Assembly: GCF_023195915.1 (NCBI RefSeq)
Contig: NZ_JALPRP010000002.1
Span: forward strand, 372,001-436,000
Source of the DNA: Methanoculleus sp. 7T
GTDB lineage: Archaea; Halobacteriota; Methanomicrobia; Methanomicrobiales; Methanoculleaceae
Reading direction: 5' to 3'
Length of the DNA: 64,000 nucleotides
A program made the position numbers and the translations under genes. A model generated the notes under the pieces. The model saw only the letters and a list, made by a program, of their open reading frames with translations. It was not told the DNA's origin and did not search any database. Of the stretch, positions 22,767 through 43,127 are shown one piece after another (position 1 is the first letter of the stretch; each line of letters begins with the position of its first letter).

Positions 22767-23738
22767 TTACCCGGAGAGGATGGCGAATATCCGCCGTAAG
22801 GTCTCGTTAAGCGGTTTCTTCTTCTGCCAGGTCTCTTCGAGCGGGGTGCATGCGAGGTCTCCCCGGATCTCTCCCACCATGCACCCGCTTCGGCCGTCGA
22901 GCAGCGCCTCGACGGCGGCCACACCGAGGGCGCTCCCGAGCACCCGGTCGCGGAGCGTCGGCGGCCCGCCCCGCTGGAGGTGCCCGAGGACGACGACCCG
23001 GGAGTCAACGTTGAGGCGCTTTTTGATGTCTCTGGCAATCTGGAAGGAGACGCCGGGCGTCTTTCCCTCAGCCACCACAACAATCGCGCTCTTCTTCCCG
23101 ATGGAAAACCCCTCGCGGATGTGCTCGCTCATCCGGGCGACTGATGCCTCTTCTTCCGGGATGACCAGTTCCTCGGCGCCGCCGGCGACACCGCTCTCGA
23201 GCGCCAAGAACCCTGCCGTGCGCCCCATCACCTCGATGAAGAAGAGCCGCTCGTGTGACCGTGCCGTGTCGCGGATGCGGTCGATCGCCTCGACCGCGCA
23301 GTTTGCCGCCGTATCGAACCCGATGCAGTAGTCGGTCCCGTAAACGTCGTTGTCGATGCTCCCCGGGACCCCGATGAGCGGCGCCGTATCGGCATCGGCG
23401 GCAAGCAGGCTTGCGCCGTGGAACGTACCCTCGCCTCCGATCAGGACCACGCCGTCGAGGTCCATCCACTCGATGGCCGCCGCTGCCCGAAGCCTCCCTT
23501 CCCTCGTGTAGAAGTCCGGGTTCCGAGAGGTCTCAAGGATGGTGCCGCCGAGATGGATGGTGTTTCGGATCGCAGCCCGGTCCAGCGGTATCGTATCGGC
23601 GCCGATGAGCCCGGTATACCCCCGGCGTATCCCGACGATGACGAGGTCGTTTGCAAGCGCGGTCCGCACCGCCGCCCGGATGCAGGCGTTCATGCCCGGG
23701 GCGTCGCCGCCGCTCGTTAGGATGCCGATGCGTTTCAT
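22767..23738 (-). CDS. 6-phosphofructokinase, ATP-dependent type
   Basis: A 323-residue bacterial-type PfkA that would phosphorylate fructose 6-phosphate. It opens [25 protein letters not shown] and carries GGEGTF (about residue 102) and PGSIDND (about 124). Glycine at both donor-determining positions is the ATP-dependent signature, unlike the enzyme at 2344-3378. Length matches E. coli PfkA (320). Its ATG overlaps the pgk stop by four bases, so the order pgk-pfk forms one operon. Most methanogens with a dedicated PFK use an unrelated ADP-dependent enzyme, so this gene was probably acquired from bacteria. Confidence 0.93.
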   Translation of the reverse strand: MKRIGILTSGGDAPGMNACIRAAVRTALANDLVIVGIRRGYTGLIGADTIPLDRAAIRNTIHLGGTILETSRNPDFYTREGRLRAAAAIEWMDLDGVVLIGGEGTFHGASLLAADADTAPLIGVPGSIDNDVYGTDYCIGFDTAANCAVEAIDRIRDTARSHERLFFIEVMGRTAGFLALESGVAGGAEELVIPEEEASVARMSEHIREGFSIGKKSAIVVVAEGKTPGVSFQIARDIKKRLNVDSRVVVLGHLQRGGPPTLRDRVLGSALGVAAVEALLDGRSGCMVGEIRGDLACTPLEETWQKKKPLNETLRRIFAILSG

Positions 23739-24946
23739 GGCTCCTCCGCCTCTTCGAGCGCCTCCACGCCCGGAAGCGGCTTTCCCGCAAGCATCGTGAG
23801 CGCGGCCCCGCCGCCCGTCGAGACGTGGGTCATCTTATCGGCAAGCCCGAACCGGGTCACTGCATCAGCGGTCGAACCGCCGCCGATGACCGTGGTGCCG
23901 TGGAGGTTGGCGAGGGTCGCAGCGACCCGGCGGGTTCCTTCCGCAAACTCCGGGACCTCGAAGACCCCCATCGGGCCGTTCCAGACGACGGTCCGGCATT
24001 CTGCAAGTTCCCGGCAGAACTCGCTTGCGGCCTCGGGCCCGATGTCGGCGATGATGAGGTCGTCGGGGATCTCCGAGGCGGGCACTACCCGGGCTCTGGT
24101 GCCTGAATCAAGACTCTCGGCGACGACGACGTCGCGGGGCAGGAGGAGGCGAACGCCGAGTTCCGCTGCCTTCGCGGAGATCCGCTCAACGTCGTCGAGT
24201 CGATCGGTCTCGACGGTCGATGCACCGGTCCCGTAGCCCCGGCTCGCAAGAAACGTCGCCGCCATGCCGCCTCCGATGAGGAGGAGGTCCACCCTCGGGA
24301 TGATGTTTTCAAGGACGCCCAGTTTGTCGCTCACCTTGGCCCCGCCGATCACGGCCGCAAACGGCCGTTCGGGGTTCTGCAGGACGCGCGCGAACGCATC
24401 CAGTTCCTTTGCGAGCAAAAGCCCGGCAACTGCCGGCAGGTGCTCCGGAACACCCACGATCGAGGCGTGAGCCCGGTGAGAGGCCCCGAAGGCGTCGTTG
24501 ACGTAGACCTCGGCGAGGCGGGAGAGGTTCTCTGCGAAGGCGGGGTCGTCCGCCTTCTCTTCCGGGTGGAACCTGAGGTTCTCAAGGAGGACGATGTCTC
24601 CGCCGCTCATCGCGGCTACAGCGCTCTCGACCTCCGGGCCGATGCAGTCGTGGAGCGCGGCGACCGGCCGGTCGAGGAGCACGGAGAGTCGGTTTGCCAC
24701 AAGGGCGAGACGCAACCGCTCTACGACGGTCCCCTGCGGCCGGTCCAAGTGGGAGCAGAGGATGACCCGTGCGTCCCGCTCGCAGAGGTAGCGGATCGTC
24801 GGTAGACTGGCCCGGATACGGGTGTCGTCGGCGATTGTGCCGTCTTCGTTGAGCGGTACGTTGAAATCGGCGCGGACAAGCACCTGTTTCCCTCTCACAT
24901 CGATATCCTTGATGGTCTTCTTCCGTCTCGTTATCATCTTCTGCAT
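23735..24946 (-). CDS. pgk: Phosphoglycerate kinase (bacterial-type)
   Basis: A 403-residue phosphoglycerate kinase. Conserved segments include [92 protein letters not shown] and [11 protein letters not shown]. The N-terminal [16 protein letters not shown] style is that of bacterial rather than archaeal PGK. The start at 24946 ([10 protein letters not shown]) has a GGAGGTG site seven bases upstream; the frame extends 45 more codons without similarity. First gene of the pgk-pfk operon; divergent from the phosphoglycerate mutase gene. Confidence 0.96.
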
Positions 24947-25152
24947 GCTGGCACACCTCCGGCGCGGCGGAGAACAGCAGGATGCTTCCCGCGCCTTCCG
25001 GCCGTTCCCCGCAGGATTACAGTGCTTCAGTGCATGCGTGCATTGACATATATACTGTTCGCCGAGGGCGTGCACAAGCATTTATCCGGTGCGGAGGACT
25101 ATGCCGGGTGCTGGGGGGCCGGCGGGCACCCCAGGTGTGGGAGCGAGATACG

Positions 25153-26023: not shown

Positions 26024-26280
26024 ACACCGGACTGTGGTAACTATCGCCTCTGGGAGAGGGGGCTGACGGGGAGGGGGGCTCCCCTGTCTCTCGCAAGGCA
26101 TTACCCGCAACCCCCCACCCCGCCCGCGCTTCGCGCTCCTCACTCGAAACCCTTCGGGTTTCTCACGCTCCCTTCGGTCGGCGACTCGCACCTCCGGTGC
26201 TCAAACTCCGCTCCGGCCGGAGCGTCGATTCCCCGCCCCCGGGGCGGGGGTCAGTGCGTGGCGATACCCGGGGGAAATCC
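26024..26280. repeat. Dispersed GC-rich modular hairpin repeat, copy A
   Basis: About 257 bp. The core at 26111-26209 is identical over 99 bp to 33568-33666. It contains short perfect hairpins in series: GCGC-TTC-GCGC, AAACCC-TTC-GGGTTT and GCACC-TCC-GGTGC, then GCTCC-GGCC-GGAGC. The left arm (ACCGGACTGTGGTAACTATC) and right end (GGGCGGGGGTCAGTGCGTGG, GATACCCGG) recur in copies B and C. No open frame is conserved among the copies. Confidence 0.75.
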
Positions 26281-26338
26281 ATGCTGAGTGTGGCTCTAGA
26301 CTCGGTTCTTCCCCGGGGTCGAACCCCGGTTGAGGAAG

Positions 26339-26351
26339 ATCATATATACCA
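26339..26351 (+). promoter_or_regulatory. TATA-box promoter of the gap operon
   Basis: GATCATATATACC lies about 45 bp upstream of the gap ATG, predicting a leader of roughly 20 nt that would include the GGGGGAAG ribosome binding site. A 7-bp hairpin abuts its upstream side. Confidence 0.5.
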
Positions 26352-26391
26352 TCCTGCAGAGGGGGACCCCTGTCAGACAGGGGGAAGTGTC

Positions 26392-27399
26392 ATGAAGAAA
26401 GTTGCCATAAACGGGTTCGGACGGATCGGGCGGAAGGTCCTCTACAACTACTTGACCGATGCACCGGGGAATATCGAGATCGTCGCGGTAAACGACCCAA
26501 ATCCGCTGGATGAACTCGCCTACCTGATGAAATACGACTCGGTCCACGGGCGGGCGCCCTTCCCGGTCGAGGCCGGCCCTGACCATCTCAGGTTCGGGTC
26601 GAAGGAAGTGCGGGTCCTAGGTGAGAGAGACCCTACACGCCTCCCGTGGAACGAACTCGGCGTGGATATGGTGCTTGAATGCACGGGACGCTTCACCGAA
26701 CGGGCGGCCTCCGCAAAGCACCTGGATGCCGGGGCTGCACGGGTCGTCATCAGCGCACCTTCGCCCGATGCAGACCTGACGGTCGTGCTCGGCGTCAACG
26801 AGAGCGCCTACGACCCCGCAAAGCATACCATCGTCTCGAACGCCTCCTGCACGACCAACGCGCTTGCGCCGGCGGCGAAGGTGCTCAACGACTCGTTCGG
26901 CGTCGAACGGCTGATGGCGACGGCGATCCATGCCTACACCGCCACCCAAGCGCTGGTCGACCGTGCCACAAAAAAGCCGCGCCGGGGACGTGCCGCGGCT
27001 GTCTCGCTCATCCCGACATCGACCGGCGCCGCCGTCGCCACCACCCACGTCCTCCCTGAACTCACCGGGAAGATGGACGCGATAGCGATCCGGGCCCCCA
27101 TCCCCGACGGGTCGGTCGTCGACATCGTCGCAGACCTGAAGCGGGATGCGACAGGAGATGCAGTGAACGCCGCGATGAAGCAGGCGGCAGAGGGGCACAT
27201 GAAGGGGTTCCTCGCGTACACCGATGACCCGATCGTCTCGGCCGATATCGTCGGGGACCCGCACTCCGGGGTCGTCGACGGGAGGTCCACGAGCGTCGTC
27301 GGCGGGCGGATGGCCCGGGTTCTGGTCTGGTACGACAACGAGTTTGCGTACGCGAAAAGGCTGGTCGACATCGCCTCCTACATGGCTTCGCGGGAGTGA
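26392..27399 (+). CDS. gap: Glyceraldehyde-3-phosphate dehydrogenase (bacterial-type)
   Basis: A 335-residue phosphorylating GAPDH. It opens MKKVAINGFGRIGRKVLYNYL (Rossmann fold, NAD-type) and has the catalytic cysteine in SNASCTTNALAPAAKVL near residue 152, HAYTATQALVDR, and WYDNEFAYAKRLVD at the end. These are the bacterial/eukaryotic type I features. Archaea normally carry the divergent type II enzyme, so this copy is probably transferred. The start at 26392 has GGGGGAAG upstream. The next gene starts seven bases after its stop. Confidence 0.96.
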   Translation: MKKVAINGFGRIGRKVLYNYLTDAPGNIEIVAVNDPNPLDELAYLMKYDSVHGRAPFPVEAGPDHLRFGSKEVRVLGERDPTRLPWNELGVDMVLECTGRFTERAASAKHLDAGAARVVISAPSPDADLTVVLGVNESAYDPAKHTIVSNASCTTNALAPAAKVLNDSFGVERLMATAIHAYTATQALVDRATKKPRRGRAAAVSLIPTSTGAAVATTHVLPELTGKMDAIAIRAPIPDGSVVDIVADLKRDATGDAVNAAMKQAAEGHMKGFLAYTDDPIVSADIVGDPHSGVVDGRSTSVVGGRMARVLVWYDNEFAYAKRLVDIASYMASRE

Positions 27400-27406
27400 G
27401 AGGTCT

Positions 27407-28465
27407 ATGATAAAACTGGTCTTCTTCGACCTCGACGAGCACGAACAGGACGTGGTCAGGGACACCTTCGCCCGCGAGAGCGGCTACGAGGTCGACCTGC
27501 ACTCTGATGCGCTCACGAGCGAGAACGCATCCCTCGCCCACGACGCCGACGGTATCGGGGTCTTCGTCACGTCGCACGTCACCCGTGACGTCCTCGGCCG
27601 CCTGCCGCATCTCAAGGTAATCGCCGCCATGTCCACCGGGTACGACCATATCGACGTTGACGCCTGCCGGGAGAGGAAGATCGCCGTCTGCAACGTGCCG
27701 CTCTACGGCGACACCACCGTGGCAGAGTTCGCGTTCGGGCTCATCCTCGCCCTCGCCCGGAGGTTCAGGCCTACGTTTGCGCGAACTGCCCGGGGTGACT
27801 TTTCCCGGACCGGTCTCCAAGGCATGGACCTCGCCGGAAAGACCCTCGGCCTGATCGGGACCGGGCGCATTGGGTCGCACCTCGCCCGCATCGCCCACGC
27901 GGCGGGGATGAACGTGATCGCCTACGACCTGCGGCCGAACCCGGACCTCACCCGGGACTACGGCGTCCGCTACCTAGACCTCGACGACCTCCTCCGTCAG
28001 GCAGACGTCATCAGCCTGCACGTCCCCTACACGAAGGCCACGCACCACCTCATCAACGCAGAGCGGCTGCGGCTGGTCAAGGATACCGCGCTCCTCATCA
28101 ACACATCCCGGGGCGGCGTGGTGGACATAAGGGCGGTCGCGGGCGCCCTCCGCGAGGGCCGCCTCGGGGGGGTCGCGCTCGATACCTTCGAGGGAGAGCA
28201 GGTCTGGATCGAGGAGGAGTTCTCGGGGACTGGCGAGCCCCCGGCGGCTGAACTCAAGGAGGCGCTTGAGAGTTTCGCCATCCTGCACTCTGACCGGGCA
28301 ATTCTCTCGCCGCACAACGCTTTCAACACCCGCGAGGCGCTCGGGCGGATCCTCGCCACCAGTATCGAGAACATCACGGCCTTCTTTGCCGGGAACCCGC
28401 AGAACATCGTTGCCGAGACCTACCTGGTGCCGGCGACGCCGCCGGCCGGGGGTGGGAGAGCATGA
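27407..28465 (+). CDS. D-2-hydroxyacid dehydrogenase, D-lactate dehydrogenase-like
   Basis: A 352-residue NAD-dependent enzyme of the D-isomer 2-hydroxyacid dehydrogenase family. The Rossmann motif is GLIGTGRIGSHLARIA; catalytic Arg is in NTSRGGVVDIRAV, Glu in DTFEGE and His in SPHNAFNTREA. STGYDHIDVDAC and the long loop before the histidine resemble fermentative D-lactate dehydrogenase. It would reduce pyruvate to D-lactate or a related keto acid. It lies in an operon with gap upstream (7-bp gap) and ppsA downstream (4-bp overlap), so it may recycle NADH made by GAPDH. The exact substrate is inferred. Confidence 0.88.
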   Translation: MIKLVFFDLDEHEQDVVRDTFARESGYEVDLHSDALTSENASLAHDADGIGVFVTSHVTRDVLGRLPHLKVIAAMSTGYDHIDVDACRERKIAVCNVPLYGDTTVAEFAFGLILALARRFRPTFARTARGDFSRTGLQGMDLAGKTLGLIGTGRIGSHLARIAHAAGMNVIAYDLRPNPDLTRDYGVRYLDLDDLLRQADVISLHVPYTKATHHLINAERLRLVKDTALLINTSRGGVVDIRAVAGALREGRLGGVALDTFEGEQVWIEEEFSGTGEPPAAELKEALESFAILHSDRAILSPHNAFNTREALGRILATSIENITAFFAGNPQNIVAETYLVPATPPAGGGRA

Positions 28466-30900
28466 AGCAGGATGCGACCTACATCCGCTGGTTCTCCGAT
28501 ATCAGAAACGAGGACGTCGGCCTCGTCGGGGGGAAGAACGCATCCCTCGGCGAGATGTACAGCGAACTGACCCCGAAAGGCGTGAAGATCCCAGACGGGT
28601 TCGCCGTGACCGCCGGGGGTTACCGGCACGTCCTCGAGTCCGCGGGGATCCTCGACGACCTGAAGGAGACGCTTGCAGGCCTCGACCGGAACAACGTCGC
28701 CGATCTTGCAGAGCGGGGGAAACGGGCCCGTGATCTCATCCTTTCAGCCGGGATCCCCGACGACCTCTGGAGCGAGATCAAGGCTGCCTACGACATGCTC
28801 TGCGACGAGTACGGACCTGATGCCGATGTCGCCGTCCGGAGTTCCGCAACCGCCGAAGACCTCCCGACGGTCTCGTTTGCGGGCCAGCAGGAGACCTACC
28901 TGAACGTCCGCGGCTACCAAGCGCTGCGGGAGGCGATCGTCCGGTGCCTCGCCTCTCTCTTCACCGACCGGGCGATCGCCTACCGGATAGACAACCATTT
29001 CGACCACTTCAAGGTCGCCCTCTCGGTCGGGGTCATGAAGATGGTCCGTTCAGACCTGGCCGCAAGCGGGGTCATCTTCACGCTCGACACCGACACCGGC
29101 TTCCGGGACGTCGTCCTCATCACCGGGTCCTATGGGCTCGGCGAGATGATCGTTCAGGGCGCCGTCAACCCCGACGAGTTCTATGTCTTCAAACCGACAT
29201 TCCGGAAGGGTTACCGTGCTATCGTCAGGAAGAACCTCGGCGAGAAGAAGGTGAAACTGATCTACGGCCACGGCGGGGCGAAAGAGGTCACCCGAACCGT
29301 CGATGTCCCGGAGGCCGACCGGAAGAGGTTCTGCATCGCCGACGACGATGTCCTGACGCTTGCCGGGTATGCGCTCACGATCGAGGACCACTACTCGACA
29401 AAGGCCGGCAAGCCGGTGCCGATGGATATCGAATGGGCAAAGGACGGCGAGACCGGAGAACTCTTCATCGTCCAGGCCCGGCCCGAGACGGTGCAGTCGC
29501 AGAAGGCGGGGGACGTCCTCGAGACCTACCACCTGGACGAACGCGGGGCGGTACTTGCCGTCGGAAAGAGCATCGGTGACGCGATCGCCGCCGGGAAGGC
29601 CAGGGTCATCACCGATGTCAGCCGTCTCCCCGACTTCAGGGCGGGGGAGGTCCTCGTCTCCGACACCACCACGCCCGACTGGGAGCCCGTGATGAAGACG
29701 GCCGCCGCCATCGTGACGAACCGGGGCGGGCGGACCTCCCACGCCGCGATCGTCAGCAGGGAGCTCGGCATCCCCGCGGTCGTCGGCACGGGCGACGCGA
29801 CCGAGAAGGTCCCGACGGGCCGAGAGGTGACGGTCAGCTGTGCCGAGGGGGAGGAGGGGTTCGTCTACAGTGGCACCCTCCCGTTCCACGTCGAGAAGAT
29901 CCGGCTCTCGGACCTGCGGCGGCCGAAGACCGAGGTGATGATGAACCTCGGAAACCCGGATGCGGCGTTTGGTCTTGCCATGGTCCCGAACGACGGTATC
30001 GGGCTCGCCCGGATGGAGTTCATCATCAGCAGTTACATCAAGGTCCACCCGATGGCGCTCGTCCACCCGGAGCGGGTCACAGACGAATCGGTCCGGAGAT
30101 CAATCGCAGAACTCATCTACGGCTACCCGGACGGTGAGGAGTACTTCGTGGAGAGGCTCGCGGAAGGCGCCGGGACCATCGCCGCGGCGTTCTACCCGAA
30201 CCCGGTGGTCGTCCGGATGAGCGACTTCAAGACCAACGAGTATGCAAGTCTGCTCGGCGGGACCTACTTCGAGCCGAAGGAAGCAAACCCGATGCTTGGG
30301 TTCCGCGGCGCCTCCCGTTACTACGACGAGCGCTACCGGGAGGGGTTCCGCCTCGAGTGCCGGGCGATGAAGCGGGTCAGAGAGGAGATGGGGCTTGCAA
30401 ACCTGATCATCATGATCCCCTTCTGCCGCCGGGTGGAGGAGGCAAAGCGGGTCATCGAGGAACTCGGGAAGAACGGTCTCCGGCGGGGCGAAAACGGCCT
30501 TCAGGTCTACCAGATGTGCGAGATACCGAACAACGTCGTCCAGATCGATGCGTTCAGCGACTACTTCGACGGGTTCTCGATAGGCTCAAACGACCTGACC
30601 CAGCTGACGCTCGGCATCGACCGCGACTCCGCGGTCGTGGGCGGGGCCTTTGATGAACGTGACCCGGGCGTCAAGCGGATGGTCGCCATGGCAGTCGAGG
30701 GGTGCCGGCGGAACGGGCGGCACAGCGGGCTCTGCGGCGAGGCGCCGAGCACCTACCCGGAGTTCGCCGACTTCTTGGTGGAGCAGGGGATCGACTCGAT
30801 ATCGGTCGAGCCCGACGCGATACTGAAGATCACCCTCCGTGTGGCCGAGGTCGAGGAGCGGCTTATGGGCGCAAAGAGGATGGCCCCGCTGCCTCGGTGA
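28462..30900 (+). CDS. ppsA: Phosphoenolpyruvate synthase
   Basis: An 812-residue PEP synthase converting pyruvate and ATP to PEP, AMP and phosphate. The N-terminal ATP-grasp part begins VGGKNASLGEMY and contains VAVRSSATAEDLPTVSFAGQQ. The phosphohistidine domain has GGRTSHAAIVSRELGIPAVVG. The C-terminal PEP barrel has GIGLARMEFIISSYIKVHP, GSNDLTQLTLGIDRDS and GLCGEAPSTYPEF, with the catalytic cysteine in LCGEAP. Length fits archaeal and bacterial PpsA. It overlaps the dehydrogenase gene by four bases. Confidence 0.95.
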   Translation: MKQDATYIRWFSDIRNEDVGLVGGKNASLGEMYSELTPKGVKIPDGFAVTAGGYRHVLESAGILDDLKETLAGLDRNNVADLAERGKRARDLILSAGIPDDLWSEIKAAYDMLCDEYGPDADVAVRSSATAEDLPTVSFAGQQETYLNVRGYQALREAIVRCLASLFTDRAIAYRIDNHFDHFKVALSVGVMKMVRSDLAASGVIFTLDTDTGFRDVVLITGSYGLGEMIVQGAVNPDEFYVFKPTFRKGYRAIVRKNLGEKKVKLIYGHGGAKEVTRTVDVPEADRKRFCIADDDVLTLAGYALTIEDHYSTKAGKPVPMDIEWAKDGETGELFIVQARPETVQSQKAGDVLETYHLDERGAVLAVGKSIGDAIAAGKARVITDVSRLPDFRAGEVLVSDTTTPDWEPVMKTAAAIVTNRGGRTSHAAIVSRELGIPAVVGTGDATEKVPTGREVTVSCAEGEEGFVYSGTLPFHVEKIRLSDLRRPKTEVMMNLGNPDAAFGLAMVPNDGIGLARMEFIISSYIKVHPMALVHPERVTDESVRRSIAELIYGYPDGEEYFVERLAEGAGTIAAAFYPNPVVVRMSDFKTNEYASLLGGTYFEPKEANPMLGFRGASRYYDERYREGFRLECRAMKRVREEMGLANLIIMIPFCRRVEEAKRVIEELGKNGLRRGENGLQVYQMCEIPNNVVQIDAFSDYFDGFSIGSNDLTQLTLGIDRDSAVVGGAFDERDPGVKRMVAMAVEGCRRNGRHSGLCGEAPSTYPEFADFLVEQGIDSISVEPDAILKITLRVAEVEERLMGAKRMAPLPR

Positions 30901-30910
30901 GGGAGATCCC

Positions 30911-33358
30911 TCACCGGACAAACGGTATACTGCCGCGGTCGATGAGGCGGTAGACGTAGACCTTTATCGGGTCCATGATCGCAAACGCCCAGACCAGTGC
31001 GTAGACCCAGACGAAGATCGCAAGCGGCCAGCCGATAGGCGTTATGATGAACCCGTAGACCGTGATCAGGGTCGCGACCACTTTTGTGGCGATCGCCGAC
31101 CAGAGCAGGGCCGGCCCGGGTTTGACGGACCAGAACGGGCCACGGGTGCGGGCGACGAAGATGGTGAGGTGGCCGGCGACCGCGAGTTTGAGGAAGATGA
31201 GCGACCGGATGACATCTAGGGAGAGGTGCAGCGGCCCTTCGGCGATGGCAAGCATGGTAAACGAGGATACGACGCCCACAAACCCGATAATTGTCGCAAG
31301 CGTGAGGATCTCACGCATCTTCCACCGCTCGGGGGACCGGGAGTAGAGGACATTATCCCAGGCGATGGTCATGATCGGGATGTCGTTTAAGAGGGCGAGG
31401 AGCACGATCATCAGGGCGGTTATCGGGAAGAACCCAAAGAGCAGGATCGAGAGGGTGATGAAGAAGAGGACCCGGATTGTCTCGGCGATCCGGTAGGTGA
31501 CATAGTGGCTCATGCGCTGAAAGATCATCCGGCTCTCTTTGATCGCGTCGATGATCACCGAGAGCCCGGGTTTTGTGAGGACGATCGCAGCCGCCGATTT
31601 TGCCGCGTCCGTGGCCCCAGCAACCGCGATCCCGACATCAGCCTTCTTCAGGGCGGGAGCGTCGTTCACGCCGTCGCCGGTCATGCCGACGATGTGGCCC
31701 CGGGACTGGAGGAGTGAGACGATGCGGTATTTGTGTTCGGGGAAGACCTCGGCGAACCCGGCCGCTTTCTCGACGATCTCCGCCGCTTTGGGGTCGGGCT
31801 CCTTTATGAATGCGTCGGCGGTGGCGATATCGGTCTTGAGGTTCACCTCCCTGGCGACTTCGCGGGCGATCGCTACATGGTCGCCGGTGACCATCTTGAC
31901 GTCGAGTCCCATATCCGCCGCCGTTTTGATGGTCGTCGCAGAGTCGTCGCGGGGCGGGTCGTGGAGCCCGATGACGCCGGCGTAGGTCCAGGCGCCGGGA
32001 GTATCGCTCCTTGCGACGCCGAGCATCCGGTAGCCTTTCTTGGCGAAGGTTCCGGAGAGGCGATCGATCGCCTCTGTAAGATCTTTCCCACCACCGGCGA
32101 GGGCGAGGATCACCTGCGGCGCACCCTTTGCGACCGAAAACTTCCGGCCGTCACTGCTCCGGACTGTGGCCTCGGTGCGCTTCACCACCGGGTCGAAGGG
32201 CTTAAATCCGGTGACGGTATAGGCGGTGAGCCGTTCTTTGATGTCCTGCGCCTCCGTCGACTCGATGATCGCGATGTCGATGGGGTCCTGGTCCTCCTCC
32301 CGGGATGCGAGGAGGGCGGCGAGGAGCACGTCGTCCTCCCGAAATCCCTCAAACGGGGCGACATCGGCGAGGGTGAGTTTATTCTCGGTGATCGTCCCTG
32401 TCTTGTCTGAGCAGAGGACGTCCACCCCGGCCATCTCCTCGATGGCGACGAGTTTGCTGACGATGGCCTCTCGCTGTGCAAGCGCCGTCGCTCCCACGGC
32501 CATGGTGATCGAGAGGACGGCCGGCAGCGCAGCTGGGATCGCCGCCACGATCAGGACAAGCGCGAACTGGAGGGTTTCAAGGATGCTCTCATGCCTGACC
32601 AGCGAAACGACGAAGACTATAGCGACGAGGGCGATCGCGAGCACAATCAGGTAGTCGCCGATCCTGACGACAGCCTTCTGGAAGTGGCTGGCCGTCATCG
32701 CCTCCCCGGCGAGTTGGGCGGTCCTGCCGAAGAAGGTCGCCTGCCCTGTGGCCACCACGAGCGCGGTCATCTCGCCTTGTTTGACGGTGGAGCCGGAGTA
32801 GGCGATGTCCGATGCGTGCTTCTCGACCGGCATCGACTCACCGGTGAGAGCGGATTCGTCGGCCGAGAGGAAGTCCCCCTCGACGAGTTTGATGTCGGCG
32901 GGCACGATGTCCCCGTTCCTGACCCGGACGATATCGCCGGGGACGAGGTCCCGTGCGGCGGCCTTCTGCCACCTGCCGTCGCGAAGCACCCTTGCTTCGA
33001 GCGCGAGCCGCCGTTTCAGCATGGCGATGGCGTTGCCTGCCTGATACTCCTGCCAGAAACCGACGATGGCGTTGATGAGGAGGAGGGCGAGGATGATCGC
33101 GAAGTCCTCCCAGCGCCCGATGGCGGCGGAGATGACGACCGCCGCCTCGATCATCCACGGGATGGGGCCCCAGAAGTAGCGGAGGAATTTCAGGACCGCG
33201 CTCTCCTCCTTCTCGGGGAGCTCGTTGGGGCCGAACCTCCGGATGCGGTCCGCCGCCTCAGCTTGGGTCAGGCCGTCCCGTTGGGATGAGAGGGCCCGGT
33301 AGAGATCGTCGACGGCCATGCCCCGGGCTTCATCAGTGCCGATTGTCTGGCGCTCCAT
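30911..33358 (-). CDS. Plasma-membrane H+-transporting P-type ATPase (type IIIA)
   Basis: An 815-residue P-type ATPase close to the fungal/plant Pma1 and archaeal type IIIA group. It has the actuator motif ADESALTGESMPVEK (~residue 170), phosphorylation site CSDKTGTITENKLTL (Asp near 318), GMTGDGVNDAPALKKADVGIAV, and about ten membrane segments. It would pump protons outward using ATP. It is convergent with ppsA, 10 bp apart. In a methanogen, which normally makes ATP from an ion gradient, the role may be pH homeostasis or reversed ion pumping; this is inference. Confidence 0.92.
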   Translation of the reverse strand: MERQTIGTDEARGMAVDDLYRALSSQRDGLTQAEAADRIRRFGPNELPEKEESAVLKFLRYFWGPIPWMIEAAVVISAAIGRWEDFAIILALLLINAIVGFWQEYQAGNAIAMLKRRLALEARVLRDGRWQKAAARDLVPGDIVRVRNGDIVPADIKLVEGDFLSADESALTGESMPVEKHASDIAYSGSTVKQGEMTALVVATGQATFFGRTAQLAGEAMTASHFQKAVVRIGDYLIVLAIALVAIVFVVSLVRHESILETLQFALVLIVAAIPAALPAVLSITMAVGATALAQREAIVSKLVAIEEMAGVDVLCSDKTGTITENKLTLADVAPFEGFREDDVLLAALLASREEDQDPIDIAIIESTEAQDIKERLTAYTVTGFKPFDPVVKRTEATVRSSDGRKFSVAKGAPQVILALAGGGKDLTEAIDRLSGTFAKKGYRMLGVARSDTPGAWTYAGVIGLHDPPRDDSATTIKTAADMGLDVKMVTGDHVAIAREVAREVNLKTDIATADAFIKEPDPKAAEIVEKAAGFAEVFPEHKYRIVSLLQSRGHIVGMTGDGVNDAPALKKADVGIAVAGATDAAKSAAAIVLTKPGLSVIIDAIKESRMIFQRMSHYVTYRIAETIRVLFFITLSILLFGFFPITALMIVLLALLNDIPIMTIAWDNVLYSRSPERWKMREILTLATIIGFVGVVSSFTMLAIAEGPLHLSLDVIRSLIFLKLAVAGHLTIFVARTRGPFWSVKPGPALLWSAIATKVVATLITVYGFIITPIGWPLAIFVWVYALVWAFAIMDPIKVYVYRLIDRGSIPFVR

Positions 33359-33470: not shown

Positions 33471-33735
33471 CAGTGGACTGTGGTGGATATCGCCATTGGG
33501 GGAAGGGGGCCGGGGAGAGGGTCTCCCCCTCCCACAAGGGGATAGCCGTTAGTTCTCTCCCCGAACCCCCCCCACCCCGCCCGCGCTTCGCGCTCCTCAC
33601 TCGAAACCCTTCGGGTTTCTCACGCTCCCTTCGGTCGGCGACTCGCACCTCCGGTGCTCAAACTCCTGCCCTTTTGGCCAGTCGTTCCCCGCCCCGGGGG
33701 CGGGGGCAGTGCGTGGGGATAGCCGGTGGGAAGCC
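33471..33735. repeat. Dispersed GC-rich modular hairpin repeat, copy B
   Basis: Contains the 99-bp block (33568-33666) identical to that of copy A. The flanks also align: CAGTGGACTGTGGTGGATATCGCC at the left and GGGGGCAGTGCGTGGGGATAGCC at the right. The last hairpin module differs from copy A, showing modular exchange. Confidence 0.75.
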
Positions 33736-33829
33736 TTGAATGGGGAGCGACTCTAACGATGGTTTCCCGGAGAAGGTAAGGTGAGGGCCAGAGATAGACG
33801 GGATCAGGTTCTTTTCCACCAATCCCAAT

Positions 33830-34056
33830 ACACTGGACCGTGGTGGCTATCCCCTTTGGGGGAGGGGCTGACGGGGAGGGGGGCTTGCCCCCCTCCCCTG
33901 TCTCACCGGGTCGCGATACCTGTAAGCCCCCACCCCACCCGGCCTGCGGCCTCCTCATTCGCACCTAGCGGTGCTCAAACTCCGCTCCTATCGGAGCGTC
34001 GATTCCCCGCCCCCCGGGGGCGGGGGCAGTGCGTGATGATACCCGGTGGGAAGCCG
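33830..34056. repeat. Dispersed GC-rich modular hairpin repeat, copy C
   Basis: Same flanks as copies A and B, but the core modules are replaced by GGCC-TGC-GGCC, GCACC-TAGC-GGTGC and GCTCC-TATC-GGAGC. The stems are conserved as base-paired units while their sequence and loops vary. Confidence 0.7.
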
Positions 34057-34113
34057 TGCCCGGGGGTGGGTGCAGGGATAGACAGAACCTGGATATTTCC
34101 AGTCTTTCCCCGG

Positions 34114-34236
34114 ACACTGGACCGTGGTGGCTATCGCATCCGGGGGGGCCGGGGAGGGGAGACCCCCACCCCGCGAGGGGCGATTCGCTGTAACCCCCCC
34201 TCGCAAGGCGGTACCCGCAAGCCCCCACCCAGCCCT
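34114..34236. repeat. Dispersed GC-rich modular hairpin repeat, partial copy D
   Basis: Starts with the same left arm as copy C (ACACTGGACCGTGGTGGCTATC) and continues through GGGGAGGGGAGACCCCC and CAAGGCGGTACCCGCAAGCC, then stops before the hairpin core. It is a truncated member of the family. Confidence 0.6.
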
Positions 34237-34368
34237 CCAGGAGCAGTGCATGGGGTACCAGAGAGAAATCGGGCTACGGATGTCTGTGAATGGTGCTATA
34301 CTGCGCAAACCCGGCCCCATCCCCCGGTGCGTCGGCAGGTTCATATAAGGCCCGGTGAATGCAGGGCC

Positions 34369-36141
34369 ATGGCGGCGAGGGACCCCGTCTGCGGGATGCC
34401 GGTGGACCCGGCAAAGGCGGCGTACTCGGTGGAGGCCCGCGGCGGGACCTATTACTTCTCAAGCGAACTCTGTAGGGATACGTTCGTCGAGGGAGAGAAG
34501 ATCGCCTATTTCTCCATGGAGATCGGCCTTGAAAGCGATATACCGACCTACAGCGGCGGCCTCGGGGTGCTTGCCGGGGACGTCATCCGATCGAGCGCCG
34601 ACCTCCTCATCCCGATGGTCGCGGTGACGCTCGTCAATCGGAAAGGCTACGTGCAGCAGCGGTTGACTCCTGAGGGCGACCAGATCGACCTCCCGGACGA
34701 GTGGAAACCCAAGGAGCATATGCGGGAACTCCCCCGGCGGGTGACCGTGCAGATCGGGGACGCAAGCGTCGCCGTCCGGGCCTGGCTCTACGACTACTGG
34801 AGCCCTGTCGGCGGCCTCGTGCCGGTGCTCTTCCTCGATACCGACCTTCCTGAGAACGCACCCGGGGACCGGGAAATAACCGACTATCTCTACGGCGGCG
34901 ATCAGGAGTACCGGCTGAAACAGGCAGTTGTGCTCGGGATCGGCGGGGCCCGGATGCTGGATGCGCTGGGTATCAAGGTCGGCAAGTACCACATCAACGA
35001 GAGCCACTCAAGCCTCCTTACCCTCGAACTCCTCAAGCGCCCGGGGATGGATGAGGAGAAGGTGCAGACGCACTGCATCTTCACCACCCACACCCCGGTG
35101 GCGGTGGCGTTCGAGACGTTCCCGCAGGATATGGCGGTTCGCCTGCTCAGGGGAGAGATCCCGCAGACCCTGCTCGACGACTATATCGGTGAGGGCGGGC
35201 TTGCGCTTGCGACCCTCGCGTTCCGCCTGAGCAGGTACGTCAACGGCGTGACGACGGCGCATATGAACTTCTCGCGGCGGCTCTTCCCGGGGTTCCACAT
35301 CCGGGCGGTGACGAACGGCGTCCACCCGCATACCTGGACGTCAGGGCCGTTCCGGGACCTCTATGACCGTTACATTTCGGGCTGGGCGCAGGAGCCGGAA
35401 CTGCTCGTCAGGGTCGACGAGATCCCGCACGAGGATATCAGGCACGCCCACCAGCAGGCGAAGCAGGCCCTGGTCGACTACGTCGCAGAGAAGAACGGTG
35501 TGGACCTGGACCTCCGAGCCCTCACGATCGGGTTCGCCCGGCGGGCGGCGGCCTACAAGCGGGCAACCCTGATCTTCTCGAATCTCGAAAAACTGCGGGA
35601 GGCCGGCAGACAGGGGGCGATCCAGCTCGTCTTCGCCGGAAAGGCTCATCCGGCGGATGCGGTCGGCAAGCAGGAGATCCGCGAGGTCCACGACGCCATG
35701 CGCGACCTCGACGGAGAAGTGACGGCCGTCTACCTCGAGAACTACACGATGGACCTTGCGGGCCTGATGACCGCCGGGGTGGATGTCTGGCTGAACACGC
35801 CCCTGCCGCCCTACGAGGCGAGCGGCACAAGCGGTATGAAGGCCGCCCTCAACGGCGTGGTCAACTTCAGCGTCCTCGACGGGTGGTGGATCGAAGGCTG
35901 GATCGAGGGGACAACCGGATGGGCGATCGGTCCAGAACCGAGTGCGCCGGTGAACGAGGCCGAGCGGCGGTCCCGGGAACTCCAGGACCTCTACAGTAAG
36001 CTCGAGTACCTGATCATCCCTACCTACTACCTCCGGAAGGACGAGTGGGCGACGATCATGCGGAGTTCGATCGCAAAGATTGCCTACTACTTCAACACTC
36101 ACCGGATGATGCGGCGCTACGCGACGGAGGCATACTTGTGA
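34369..36141 (+). CDS. Alpha-glucan phosphorylase with N-terminal YHS domain
   Basis: A 590-residue protein. Residues 1-40 (RDPVCGMPVD..., TYYFSSELCRDTF) form a YHS-type metal-binding domain with cysteines at 8 and 35. From residue 45 it is a short-form GT35 phosphorylase: IAYFSMEIGLESDIPTYSGGLGVLAGD, HTPV, the PLP-lysine region EASGTSGMKAALNGVVN (Lys near 490) and a YFNTHRMMRRY end. It would release glucose 1-phosphate from storage glucan. The start ATG at 34369 is about 25 nt after a TATA box (34340-34350), suggesting a leaderless mRNA, and the YHS part is in frame and contiguous with the phosphorylase. Confidence 0.93.
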   Translation: MAARDPVCGMPVDPAKAAYSVEARGGTYYFSSELCRDTFVEGEKIAYFSMEIGLESDIPTYSGGLGVLAGDVIRSSADLLIPMVAVTLVNRKGYVQQRLTPEGDQIDLPDEWKPKEHMRELPRRVTVQIGDASVAVRAWLYDYWSPVGGLVPVLFLDTDLPENAPGDREITDYLYGGDQEYRLKQAVVLGIGGARMLDALGIKVGKYHINESHSSLLTLELLKRPGMDEEKVQTHCIFTTHTPVAVAFETFPQDMAVRLLRGEIPQTLLDDYIGEGGLALATLAFRLSRYVNGVTTAHMNFSRRLFPGFHIRAVTNGVHPHTWTSGPFRDLYDRYISGWAQEPELLVRVDEIPHEDIRHAHQQAKQALVDYVAEKNGVDLDLRALTIGFARRAAAYKRATLIFSNLEKLREAGRQGAIQLVFAGKAHPADAVGKQEIREVHDAMRDLDGEVTAVYLENYTMDLAGLMTAGVDVWLNTPLPPYEASGTSGMKAALNGVVNFSVLDGWWIEGWIEGTTGWAIGPEPSAPVNEAERRSRELQDLYSKLEYLIIPTYYLRKDEWATIMRSSIAKIAYYFNTHRMMRRYATEAYL

Positions 36142-36142
36142 A

Positions 36143-37311
36143 CTACCCCCCGCTTGCGCAGGGGGCTTCCTGCTTCATCCCCCTCCCCACCGGGAGCGAG
36201 TCCACAGGCTCGACGGCGCGTTCCGCGCCTGCAAGTGCGAATTGTTTGATATTGGTCGCGGCGTTCAGGTCCCGGTCGTGGGTCGTCCCGCAGTCCGGGC
36301 ACGTCCATTCCCGGTCCTTCAGCGTCAGATCGGCCTTCCGGTAGCCGCAGACCGAGCAGGTCTTTGAGGACGGTTCGAAGACCCCGATCGTCAGCAGGGT
36401 CTTCCCCGCCCCCTGACACTTGTACGCCAGCATCGAAAGGAACGTTCCCCATCCGGCATCGCTGATCGCCCGGGCCAGAGAGTGGTTCTTCACCATGCTG
36501 TCCACGTTTAGGGACTCCACGGCTAGTGCTTGGTTTTCGCGGACCAGTCGAGAAGAGAGCTGGTGCTGGAAGTCCCGCCGTTGAGCGGCAATCTTCTGGT
36601 GACATCGGGCAACCTTGAGCCGGGCTTTGTTCCGGTTCTTCGAGCCCTTTTTCTTGCGGTCGAGCCTGCGCTGGAGCACGGCCAACCGCGTTTGAGCGTT
36701 CCTGAGATACTTAGGGTTCTCTACTTTCTCCCCCGTCGAGAGAACCGCGTAGTGCGCGAGCCCCAGGTCGATCCCGACCGTCTGATCCGAGATCGGATCG
36801 GCGGGCTTCGGCGGCTTCCGGCCGTCCTCGACCACGATGCTGAGGAAGTACCGACCGGTCGAAGTTCGGATCACCGTCGCGGACTTCATCGTGTCCACGA
36901 AGGTGCGGTGGTACTTGACCTTGACCACCCCGATCTTCGGGAGCTTCACGGTACCCCGCTCGAAGTCCACGGTGTAGGATTGTGGGACCGTGAACGCCTG
37001 CTCGGGGGCATGCTTCGCCTTGAAGGTCGGCTCTTCGGCCCGCCCCTCGAAGAAGTTCGTGAACGCGCGGAAAAGGTGTGGATCGATTGCTGCAGCGACT
37101 GGGCGTTGACCTCCTTGAGCCACGGCAACTCCGCTTTGAGCGCGGGGAGCTGCTTCATGAGGTCGTATCTGGACAAGCTGATACCATCGTCCCGGTATGC
37201 CAGGTTCTTGCGGGCAAGCGCCCAGTTGTACACAAACCGGCAGCACCCAAGGTGCCTGGCGATCAGGGTCTTCTGATCCTTCGTGGGATACAGCCGGTAC
37301 CTCCGCAGCAT
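36143..37311 (-). pseudogene. tnpB: IS605-type TnpB RNA-guided nuclease, frameshifted
   Basis: TnpB-like protein split over two reading frames. The N-terminal part (MLRRYRLYPTKDQKTLIARHLG..., from 37311) reads in one frame up to about 37080. The rest (FRAFTNFFEGRAEEPTFK... to 36143) reads in the frame one base over. A single-base indel near 37070-37090 explains both. Downstream the catalytic set is intact: GIDLGLAHYAVLS, AVESLNVD and HDRDLNAATNI for the RuvC Asp-Glu-Asp, plus the zinc finger CSVCGYR...CPDCG. No tnpA is adjacent. The element ends one base after the phosphorylase stop, with a CCCCC/GGGGG hairpin near 36146-36165 marking its right end. Confidence 0.85.
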
Positions 37312-37464
37312 ACGATAGCGTCATGTTGATCCTCCGCTGGCATAAAGAAGCGCCGTGCGGCGTGAAAGTGAAGAAGGGGCGCCGCTCTCACCTCCCCCCT
37401 CGCGGAGGGACCCCTCTCGCTCATGCCCCGAGAGCCCCGCAGAGGTAGAAGATCCGGCCCGGCG

Positions 37465-41411: not shown

Positions 41412-42704
41412 TTATTTCGGTTTATAGTAACCCCACTTCTCGAGGGCCTCTCTGAGTTCCGGGGCTCGTTTCGCCTTCTCATCGAGCGTCTCGCCCTCTT
41501 CCCACGCCTCTATCGCCTGCATGGTGGCCTCTGCGCCGGCCCGCGTGCCCTTCGGGTGGCCGTGGATGCCGCCGCTGACGAGGAGGACGAGTTCGCTGCC
41601 GTAGATATCGAGCACATCCGGCACAAGCCCGGGGTGGAGCCCGCCCGAAGAGACCGGGAAGGCACTCTTGATCCCGCCCCAGTCCTGGTCGAGGGCCATG
41701 TGGTTCACTGCGTTCGTATGCTTCTCCCGGACCATATCGGCAAGCAGGGTGGCCTCCGCTCTCGTGCCGACCAGTTTCCCGACGGCTGTCCCGGTGTGGA
41801 TCTGCGAAACGCCGATGAGCCGCATGATCTTCGCGAGGAACTGCATCGTGATGCCGTGCTTCTCGTCCCGGTCGAAGGCCGCGTGCATCGCCCGGTGGGC
41901 ATGGATGGCAAGCCCGAGGTCCGAGCAGTAGTCCCGGAGGGTCGCGACTGCGGCGGTCCCGGCGACTACGACATCGATCATCGCGTAGTTCCAGCCGTAG
42001 TCCGCAAGCATCTTCGCCCGTTTCTTCATCGTCTCCGTATCGGCCGTGATGTTGATGAGCGCGGACTTCACGTCGCCGGTCTCCTGCTCGGCTTTATTGC
42101 GCATCTTCGTCATGGCCCGGACGCGGTCCTCGAACCGGTTGAACGAGAGCGAGGTCAGGTTCTCGTCGTCCTTCACGAAGTCGAACCCGCCCATCCAGGT
42201 CTCGTAGCCGACCTCCGCGTGCTCTGCCGCGGTGAACCCCACCTTCGGCTTCGGCACCGCTCCCGTGAGCGGCCGCCCCCGGACCTTCATCATGTCGCGG
42301 ATCCCATCCATACCGAAGTGCGGCCCCGCAAAGTGCCGGAGGTATTCGGCCGGGAGCGAGGCGTCGATCAGCCGCAGGCTCGCCAGGGCCTTCATGCCGA
42401 AGACGTTCCCCGCGATGCCGCTTAAGAGTTGGGCTGCGTTCCCCTCCTCCCAGAGGGCGAGGGGATAGGCAATCTTTACGTAGTTTCCCTCAATCTCGAA
42501 AGCCTTCGCTTGGAGTTCCCGCATCCGGGGCGGCATGGTAAAGAGCGTGGTCCAGGTCCCGGTCGAGCTCTCGGACGCGATCCTCCCCACCGCCTCCTCC
42601 CTGCTGATTCCCGCCGCAGGTTCGAAGTAGTAAAGAGCTACGAGTTCGTCAGGGTTTGGGGTGTGGTTTAGGTCAACAAATTCTTCATACCAGTCGATTG
42701 CCAT
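41412..42704 (-). CDS. rbcL: Form III ribulose-bisphosphate carboxylase
   Basis: A 430-residue archaeal form III RuBisCO large subunit. Active-site segments: TGAVPKPKVGF (catalytic Lys), GGFDFVKDDENL with the carbamylated Lys and metal ligands, AIHAHRAMHAAFDR, and the loop-6 region GTAVGKL. It fixes CO2 onto ribulose 1,5-bisphosphate made from nucleosides, or in the reductive hexulose-phosphate pathway described in Methanospirillum. The ATG at 42704 has a GGTGAT site; a longer frame to 42779 has no family similarity. Confidence 0.97.
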   Translation of the reverse strand: MAIDWYEEFVDLNHTPNPDELVALYYFEPAAGISREEAVGRIASESSTGTWTTLFTMPPRMRELQAKAFEIEGNYVKIAYPLALWEEGNAAQLLSGIAGNVFGMKALASLRLIDASLPAEYLRHFAGPHFGMDGIRDMMKVRGRPLTGAVPKPKVGFTAAEHAEVGYETWMGGFDFVKDDENLTSLSFNRFEDRVRAMTKMRNKAEQETGDVKSALINITADTETMKKRAKMLADYGWNYAMIDVVVAGTAAVATLRDYCSDLGLAIHAHRAMHAAFDRDEKHGITMQFLAKIMRLIGVSQIHTGTAVGKLVGTRAEATLLADMVREKHTNAVNHMALDQDWGGIKSAFPVSSGGLHPGLVPDVLDIYGSELVLLVSGGIHGHPKGTRAGAEATMQAIEAWEEGETLDEKAKRAPELREALEKWGYYKPK

Positions 42705-43127
42705 ATCATCACCGCATGAATGGAAGGGGTGCGCTGATAGAAAAAACTTCCATTTGGGGTAGGATATGCAGACCTGCATGCTACCAGTGCGGACCCCTCT
42801 GCCGGAAGAGGCTGGAAGGCGCGTCGGAGGCCTGCAGTCGCTCCGCGACCGACGGAGGAGTCGACCAGTTTGTGGTACAAGGATACGCTTCGTCCCTTGC
42901 GAGAGGGGCGGCGGCAGTCGGAGCAGAACGGGCTGTTGTTACGTTCGTTAAAATATTTTATATTAGGTAAAATTATTATGTTTTGAGTTCACACTAGTGT
43001 GTGGCCAGGTATCACCCATGATGGAACCTTGCCTGTGCCCGAGCCTCTATCCCATACCCTTCCAGTGCACCACTGCACGTCCACTATACCCTCATATTTT
43101 TTGCGGCTCGCTGCCTGATGGGGCGCA
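42705..43127. other. Long region upstream of rbcL, possible structured leader and promoter
   Basis: About 420 bases with no gene. On the minus strand an AT-rich core (TTAAAATATTTTATATTA, 42950-42967) is the best TATA box for rbcL and predicts a leader of over 200 nt. A perfect 12-bp palindrome CACACTAGTGTG (42990-43001) lies just upstream of it and could be an operator. The predicted leader region 42770-42940 has several stem-forming stretches but matches no RNA family I recognise. Confidence 0.45.
42990..43001. promoter_or_regulatory. Perfect 12-bp palindrome upstream of the rbcL promoter
   Basis: CACACTAGTGTG is self-complementary and lies about 25-40 bp upstream of the predicted TATA core for rbcL on the minus strand, a position typical for activator or repressor sites. 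Confidence 0.4.

What the first reader, a model, noticed from the sequence alone, without database searches (positions are those of the whole stretch)
34369..36141. YHS metal-binding domain fused to alpha-glucan phosphorylase
Residues 1-40 match the YHS pattern (DPVCGM...YYFSSELC) and continue in frame into the phosphorylase core at IAYFSMEIGL. YHS domains are usually on metal ATPases, hydroxylases or small metal proteins. The fusion suggests metal or redox control of glucan breakdown.
Basis: partly seen in the sequence, partly recalled or inferred. Interest (0 to 1): 0.6.

Follow-up and report, generated by a model that had tools for sequence, protein, structure and literature searches.

The report
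YHS domain fused to glucan phosphorylase
A methanogen enzyme that breaks down stored sugar polymer really does carry a small domain of a kind that often binds metal; the join is old and maintained by selection, but the metal-gripping residues are decaying in many of its relatives, so metal control of the enzyme is possible rather than established.

Summary
ORF 34369-36141(+) encodes 590 aa: residues 4-41 match YHS (PF04945, 34.3 bits, cut-off 30.3) and 45-589 match alpha-glucan phosphorylase TIGR02094 (505 bits). It is not a start-site artefact. The same gapless fusion is in 18 of 35 Methanoculleus genomes (17 intact at the N-terminus, one split copy lacking it) and five other archaea. Those rows form one clade (100/100), so the archaeal fusion arose once, and the YHS part is under purifying selection.

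The metal/redox interpretation is only partly supported. By the published ligand spacing (Asp, Cys, Cys, Cys), this protein has D5, C8 and C35 but Ser at 31. The sites read D/C/C/C in the deepest branch, D/C/C/H in two others, and are largely lost in others (D/S/D/H; D/W/V/H), while fold residues persist. I favour a fixed N-terminal structural or allosteric module with an eroding ancestral metal site.

No paper in the held library describes either.

The parts
34369..36141 (+). YHS-alpha-glucan phosphorylase, 590 aa, complete
   Evidence: 590/590 residues aligned with relatives
34378..34491 (+). YHS domain, residues 4-41 (ligand positions D5 34381-34383, C8 34390-34392, S31 34459-34461, C35 34471-34473)
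   Evidence: PF04945 34.3 bits, profile 2-38 of 47; ligand spacing as in PMC4626032
34501..36138 (+). phosphorylase core, residues 45-590
   Evidence: TIGR02094 505 bits; AlphaFold2 pLDDT mostly 85-98; Foldseek best match S. copri glycogen phosphorylase 9l6i, TMq 0.83
35110..35112 (+). F248, replacing the near-invariant His of TTHTPVxAGHD
   Evidence: F/M in 17 of 17 archaeal fused rows, His in 42 of 43 others
35839..35841 (+). K491, putative PLP lysine in EASGTSGMKA
   Evidence: invariant column in A1; role from knowledge of the family
34340..34358 (+). TATA-like TTCATATAAG (34340-34349) and Shine-Dalgarno GGTGA (34354-34358)
   Evidence: read; partly conserved; function inferred
30911..33358 (-). 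type IIIA proton-efflux P-type ATPase, conserved neighbour
   Evidence: TIGR01647 1037 bits; synteny
28462..30900 (+). PEP synthase, conserved neighbour
   Evidence: NF005057/TIGR01418; synteny; directly downstream of the fused gene in G045
26197..27399 (+). type I GAPDH (HMM match starts near codon 66 of this ORF)
   Evidence: TIGR01534 389 bits; synteny
27224..28465 (+). D-2-hydroxyacid dehydrogenase
   Evidence: PF02826/PF00389
24982..25899 (+). 2,3-BPG-dependent phosphoglycerate mutase
   Evidence: NF010713/TIGR01258
22767..25081 (-). 6-phosphofructokinase (22767-23738) and phosphoglycerate kinase (23735-25081)

Best explanation
A specialised short-form (GT35, TIGR02094, no DUF3417) alpha-glucan phosphorylase of methanogens acquired a YHS domain once. 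The YHS part was shortened at its C-terminus and joined without a linker to the first core strand, so it now forms a fixed N-terminal module. Shown: the fusion, its single archaeal origin, its purifying selection, its gapless junction, and loss of metal ligands in some branches while fold residues (D5, P6, G9, P11, G25, Y28, F30, F39, E41, G42) stay. Inferred: the module's retained job is to stabilise or allosterically tune the core (or its oligomer). It began as a metal-binding domain and still may bind metal where ligands survive, perhaps weakly here (D5, C8, C35). Inferred role of the enzyme: glucan + Pi -> glucose 1-phosphate, feeding the adjacent glycolytic genes.
For: Two family models over cut-off in one ORF. 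Fused clade one side of a branch, 100/100. No indel at the junction in any fused row examined. dN below dS in the YHS part in informative pairs. Ligand states against invariant fold residues. Catalytic motifs kept. Clade-wide active-site-motif change. Conserved neighbours GAPDH-I, PEP synthase and H+-ATPase in most fused Methanoculleus loci. Among 24 near-complete Methanoculleus genomes 11 of 12 with the fusion have GAPDH-I against 5 of 12 without (one-sided Fisher p about 0.014 by hand, genomes not independent).
Against: No experimental data. AlphaFold2 gave pLDDT 34-44 for residues 1-40, and the fused-only alignment failed altogether, so packing of YHS on the core is not shown. Retained C8 and C35 in all Methanoculleus-core sequences fits a metal or thiol role there just as well. 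dN/dS over 39 codons is imprecise.
Confidence: 0.5

Rival explanations
1. The YHS part is a working metal or thiol sensor in this protein: D5, C8 and C35, plus a water or core ligand, bind Cu(I)/Zn(II) or react with oxidants and switch phosphorolysis.
For: D5, C8 and C35 invariant in the Methanoculleus core clade. YHS-dependent Cu(II) activation of an adenylyl cyclase (PMC4626032). Complete ligand sets in G257 and in the cyanobacterial fusions, one of which lies near a YHS-bearing copper-type ATPase and a small YHS protein.
Against: The third Cys is Ser31 throughout the window's lineage. Ligands are lost in G002 and G026/G081/G122 of the same clade. No metal gene next to the window's copy.
Confidence: 0.3
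2. The YHS part is a passenger left by the fusion event, tolerated because the N-terminus is free, with no function.
For: Unfused orthologues at 50-61% identity start just before IAYFS. Ligand erosion; G002 falls below the YHS cut-off (16.3 bits).
Against: No indels or loss of the domain in any of the 17 archaeal rows placed on the tree; invariant fold residues; dN below dS.
Confidence: 0.15
3. Annotation artefact: translation starts downstream of the YHS part, or the two parts are separate genes.
For: Unfused orthologues start near IAYFS.
Against: No start codon between V21 and M50; same-frame gapless fusion in many independent assemblies; conserved ATG with Shine-Dalgarno.
Confidence: 0.02

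Closest known systems
YHS-bearing adenylyl cyclase of Mycobacterium phlei (PMC4626032)
   Same: A YHS domain fused to an unrelated enzyme; the ligand spacing (D178, C181, C204, C208) is matched position for position by D5, C8, 31 and 35.
   Different: YHS is C-terminal with an 8-residue linker and has all four ligands; here it is N-terminal, truncated, linker-less and has Ser for the second Cys. Cu activation is measured there, nothing here.
Short-form alpha-glucan phosphorylases (TIGR02094 without DUF3417) of Methanosarcina, Bathyarchaeota, Nitrospirota
   Same: Orthologous core, 50-61% identity, same catalytic motifs.
   Different: They have no YHS part and keep His at the AGHD motif.
YHS-GlgP on cyanobacterial plasmids (Stanieria, Leptolyngbya, Aulosira, Chroococcidiopsis)
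   Same: N-terminal YHS on a short-form GlgP.
   Different: Apparently separate origin (one fused clade rejected, p-AU 0.011); full-length YHS with all ligands, about 15-residue linker, AGHD kept in the two read in full, metal or stress gene neighbours.
Paralogous long-form phosphorylases of the same genome (788 aa and 758 aa frames)
   Same: TIGR02094-type core, about 42% identity.
   Different: A different N-terminal extension of about 120-150 aa, of the DUF3417 type by eye, in place of YHS; AGHD/AAHD kept.

Membership tests
YHS domain (PF04945) | Score over the curated cut-off | tested here: met
   34.3 against 30.3 bits
YHS domain (PF04945) | Metal-ligand set Asp + three Cys | tested here: not met
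   D5, C8, S31, C35: three of four; positions from PMC4626032. Not required for Pfam membership
YHS domain (PF04945) | Full-length domain | tested here: not met
   profile 2-38 of 47; the C-terminal segment is replaced by the core start
Metal-sensing YHS enzyme (M. phlei cyclase type) | Metal-dependent change of activity through YHS | not testable with these tools
   needs biochemistry
alpha-glucan phosphorylase TIGR02094 (GT35) | Score over cut-off along the full model | tested here: met
   505.3 against 191.7 bits, model 1-598 of 600
alpha-glucan phosphorylase TIGR02094 (GT35) | PLP lysine and phosphate-site motifs | tested here: met
   K491, R391/R392, K397/R398, H241 invariant in A1; roles from knowledge of the family
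alpha-glucan phosphorylase TIGR02094 (GT35) | Phosphorolysis activity | not testable with these tools
   no assay
Long-form GlgP with N-terminal DUF3417 | DUF3417 (PF11897) present | tested here: not met
   absent from the Pfam scan of the protein at E <= 1; only sub-threshold 13-16 bit matches around the junction in N-terminal fragments of four fused relatives

The most novel reading that the evidence does not exclude
Metal-gated glycogen mobilisation arose at least twice, in methanogens and in cyanobacterial plasmids, by fusing a YHS metal sensor to the short-form phosphorylase, linking metal or ion stress to release of stored sugar; in some archaeal lineages the sensor then lost its metal site.
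Probability: 0.2. Interest if true: 0.7.

Novelty: new variant of a known kind. Interest (0 to 1): 0.48.

Why it matters
YHS domains are widespread, yet in the held literature an enzyme-regulating role rests on one adenylyl cyclase. This fused clade is a natural series from complete to absent metal ligands on one enzyme, so it can separate the structural from the metal-dependent role of a YHS domain. It would also bear on how methanogens control glycogen use, which a 2024 review calls mainly unexplored in archaea (PMC11046441).

Tried and rejected
Downstream start: rejected (no start codon V21-M50). Frameshift or assembly artefact: rejected by recurrence. Truncation of the 3' end by the adjacent TnpB element: rejected, all 590 residues align with relatives. 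Structure of the YHS part: AlphaFold2 with 57 rows gave a good core but pLDDT 34-44 for residues 1-40; 11 fused rows alone gave a useless model (pLDDT 33); no coordinates were available for packing analysis. PDB sequence search with the YHS part found only ribosomal eL24, E 0.41. Co-inheritance with phosphofructokinase: not specific, 31 of 35 genomes have it. Rfam: nothing in the window. Papers naming YHS together with glycogen or glucan phosphorylase: none.

Full report
What is there. The ORF at 34369-36141(+) is exactly as described. Residues 4-41 match the YHS domain at 34.3 bits (cut-off 30.3), and residues 45-589 match alpha-glucan family phosphorylase TIGR02094 at 505 bits along the full model. 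AlphaFold2 models the core with high confidence, and the best fold match is the Segatella copri glycogen phosphorylase (TMq 0.83). Motif residues expected for phosphorylase catalysis are invariant in a 57-row alignment; their roles are from knowledge of the GT35 family.

Start site. No ATG, GTG or TTG lies between V21 and M50, and M50 is inside the conserved first motif of the core, so a start just after the YHS part is impossible in this sequence (read). The ATG at 34369 is invariant across 12 Methanoculleus-type loci, with GGTGA 10 nt upstream in the window, while the sequence upstream of it contains out-of-frame gaps between species.

Distribution and origin. A whole-protein search of 35 Methanoculleus genomes found the fused form in 18; in one (G028) the gene is split over contigs without its N-terminal part. 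Others are in G081 (same family), G045 and G122 (same order), and in G257 and G526 elsewhere in the phylum. G536, of the same genus as G526, has a broken copy; only these 2 of 31 genomes of that genus carry it. Related unfused enzymes from Methanosarcina, Bathyarchaeota and Nitrospirota begin directly before IAYFS. On a maximum-likelihood tree of core sequences alone the 17 fused rows are one side of a branch with 100/100 support, so the archaeal fusion happened once; patchy distribution and near-identity across families (G026, G122) suggest horizontal transfer, or in G122 bin contamination.

Selection and erosion. The junction has no gap in any fused row examined and dN in the YHS part is below dS in informative pairs, comparable with the core though imprecise over 39 codons. 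Ligand positions were set by the spacing of D178, C181, C204 and C208 in the M. phlei adenylyl cyclase (PMC4626032), which fits D5, C8, 31 and 35 exactly. The states are D/C/C/C (G257), D/C/C/H (G526, G045), D/C/S/C (window and the Methanoculleus core clade), D/S/D/H (G026, G081, G122) and D/W/V/H (G002). Eight diverse sequences keep D5, P6, G9, P11, G25, Y28, F30, F39, E41 and G42 but not the Cys. The first position is thus always Asp and position 35 always Cys or His, while 8 and 31 have been lost more than once.

A core change that goes with the fusion. In the motif TTHTPVxAGHD the His is present in 42 of 43 unfused sequences and is F or M in all 17 archaeal fused ones; the preceding Gly is Ala in all 17. 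By comparison with rabbit phosphorylase (from memory) this is the 380s loop near the acceptor site, so a changed glucan preference is a testable guess.

Neighbourhood. Around the gene lie phosphofructokinase, phosphoglycerate kinase, dPGM, type I GAPDH, a 2-hydroxyacid dehydrogenase, PEP synthase and a type IIIA proton P-type ATPase. GAPDH, PEP synthase and the ATPase recur beside the fused gene in most Methanoculleus loci examined, several of them also in G026 and G081; in G122 the ATPase, PFK and dPGM are there; in G045 PEP synthase follows directly. G002 lacks this arrangement. The fusion and GAPDH-I co-occur in 11 of 12 near-complete fused genomes against 5 of 12 unfused. Unfused short-form GlgP genes of Methanotrichaceae and some Bathyarchaeota also have a P-type ATPase nearby, there of Ca-like type II; I did not measure a background rate, so this linkage is suggestive only.

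Second fusion. A plasmid search returned cyanobacterial GlgP proteins matching from query residue 4. Two were scanned and have YHS over cut-off (35.1 and 32.2 bits); all four read show complete D/C/C/C ligands and a linker before the core. They lie far from the archaeal clade, and a single fused clade is rejected with p-AU 0.011; the group was named after seeing the tree, long branches are involved, and one ancient fusion with many losses is not formally excluded. Neighbours include heavy-metal ATPases and a multicopper oxidase, or phytochelatin synthase, a YHS-bearing copper-type ATPase and a small YHS protein; in Chroococcidiopsis and Leptolyngbya they are stress or Mg-ATPase genes instead.

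Judgement. The fusion is genuine and inherited. Its general role in archaea cannot depend on metal, because ligands are lost in parts of the clade; a structural or allosteric role is the best-supported reading (0.5), with a metal or thiol switch in this particular protein still open (0.3). I found no description of either fusion in the held papers, which does not exclude database listings.

Noticed in passing
33687-34340: GC-rich interspersed repeat: the stretch 34005-34340 has 58 matches across the genome (many partial), and diverged direct repeats lie just upstream of the fused gene.
   Followed up: partly
36143-37324: IS605-type TnpB (OrfB/Cas12f1-like) ORF ends, convergent, two bases after the stop codon of the fused gene.
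   Followed up: partly
41412-42779: Type III RuBisCO large subunit about 5 kb downstream, in a carbon-metabolism-rich window.
   Followed up: no
L145 10300-10500, - strand: G002, whose fused YHS has lost its Cys ligands, has a stand-alone canonical YHS gene (60-aa frame) about 1.8 kb upstream.
   Followed up: partly
L193 8689-8982: Broken copy of the YHS-phosphorylase gene (97-aa open frame) in G536.
   Followed up: no
L149 9173-10981: G122's fused protein is nearly identical to that of G026 from a different family: recent transfer or MAG contamination.
   Followed up: no
L197 2361-4731: Aulosira plasmid: small YHS protein and YHS-bearing copper-type P-type ATPase about 2-4 kb from the YHS-GlgP gene.
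   Followed up: partly
L056, L060, L061, L062: Unfused GlgP directly followed by a P-type ATPase (type II, Ca-like where scanned) in Methanotrichaceae-type genomes.
   Followed up: partly
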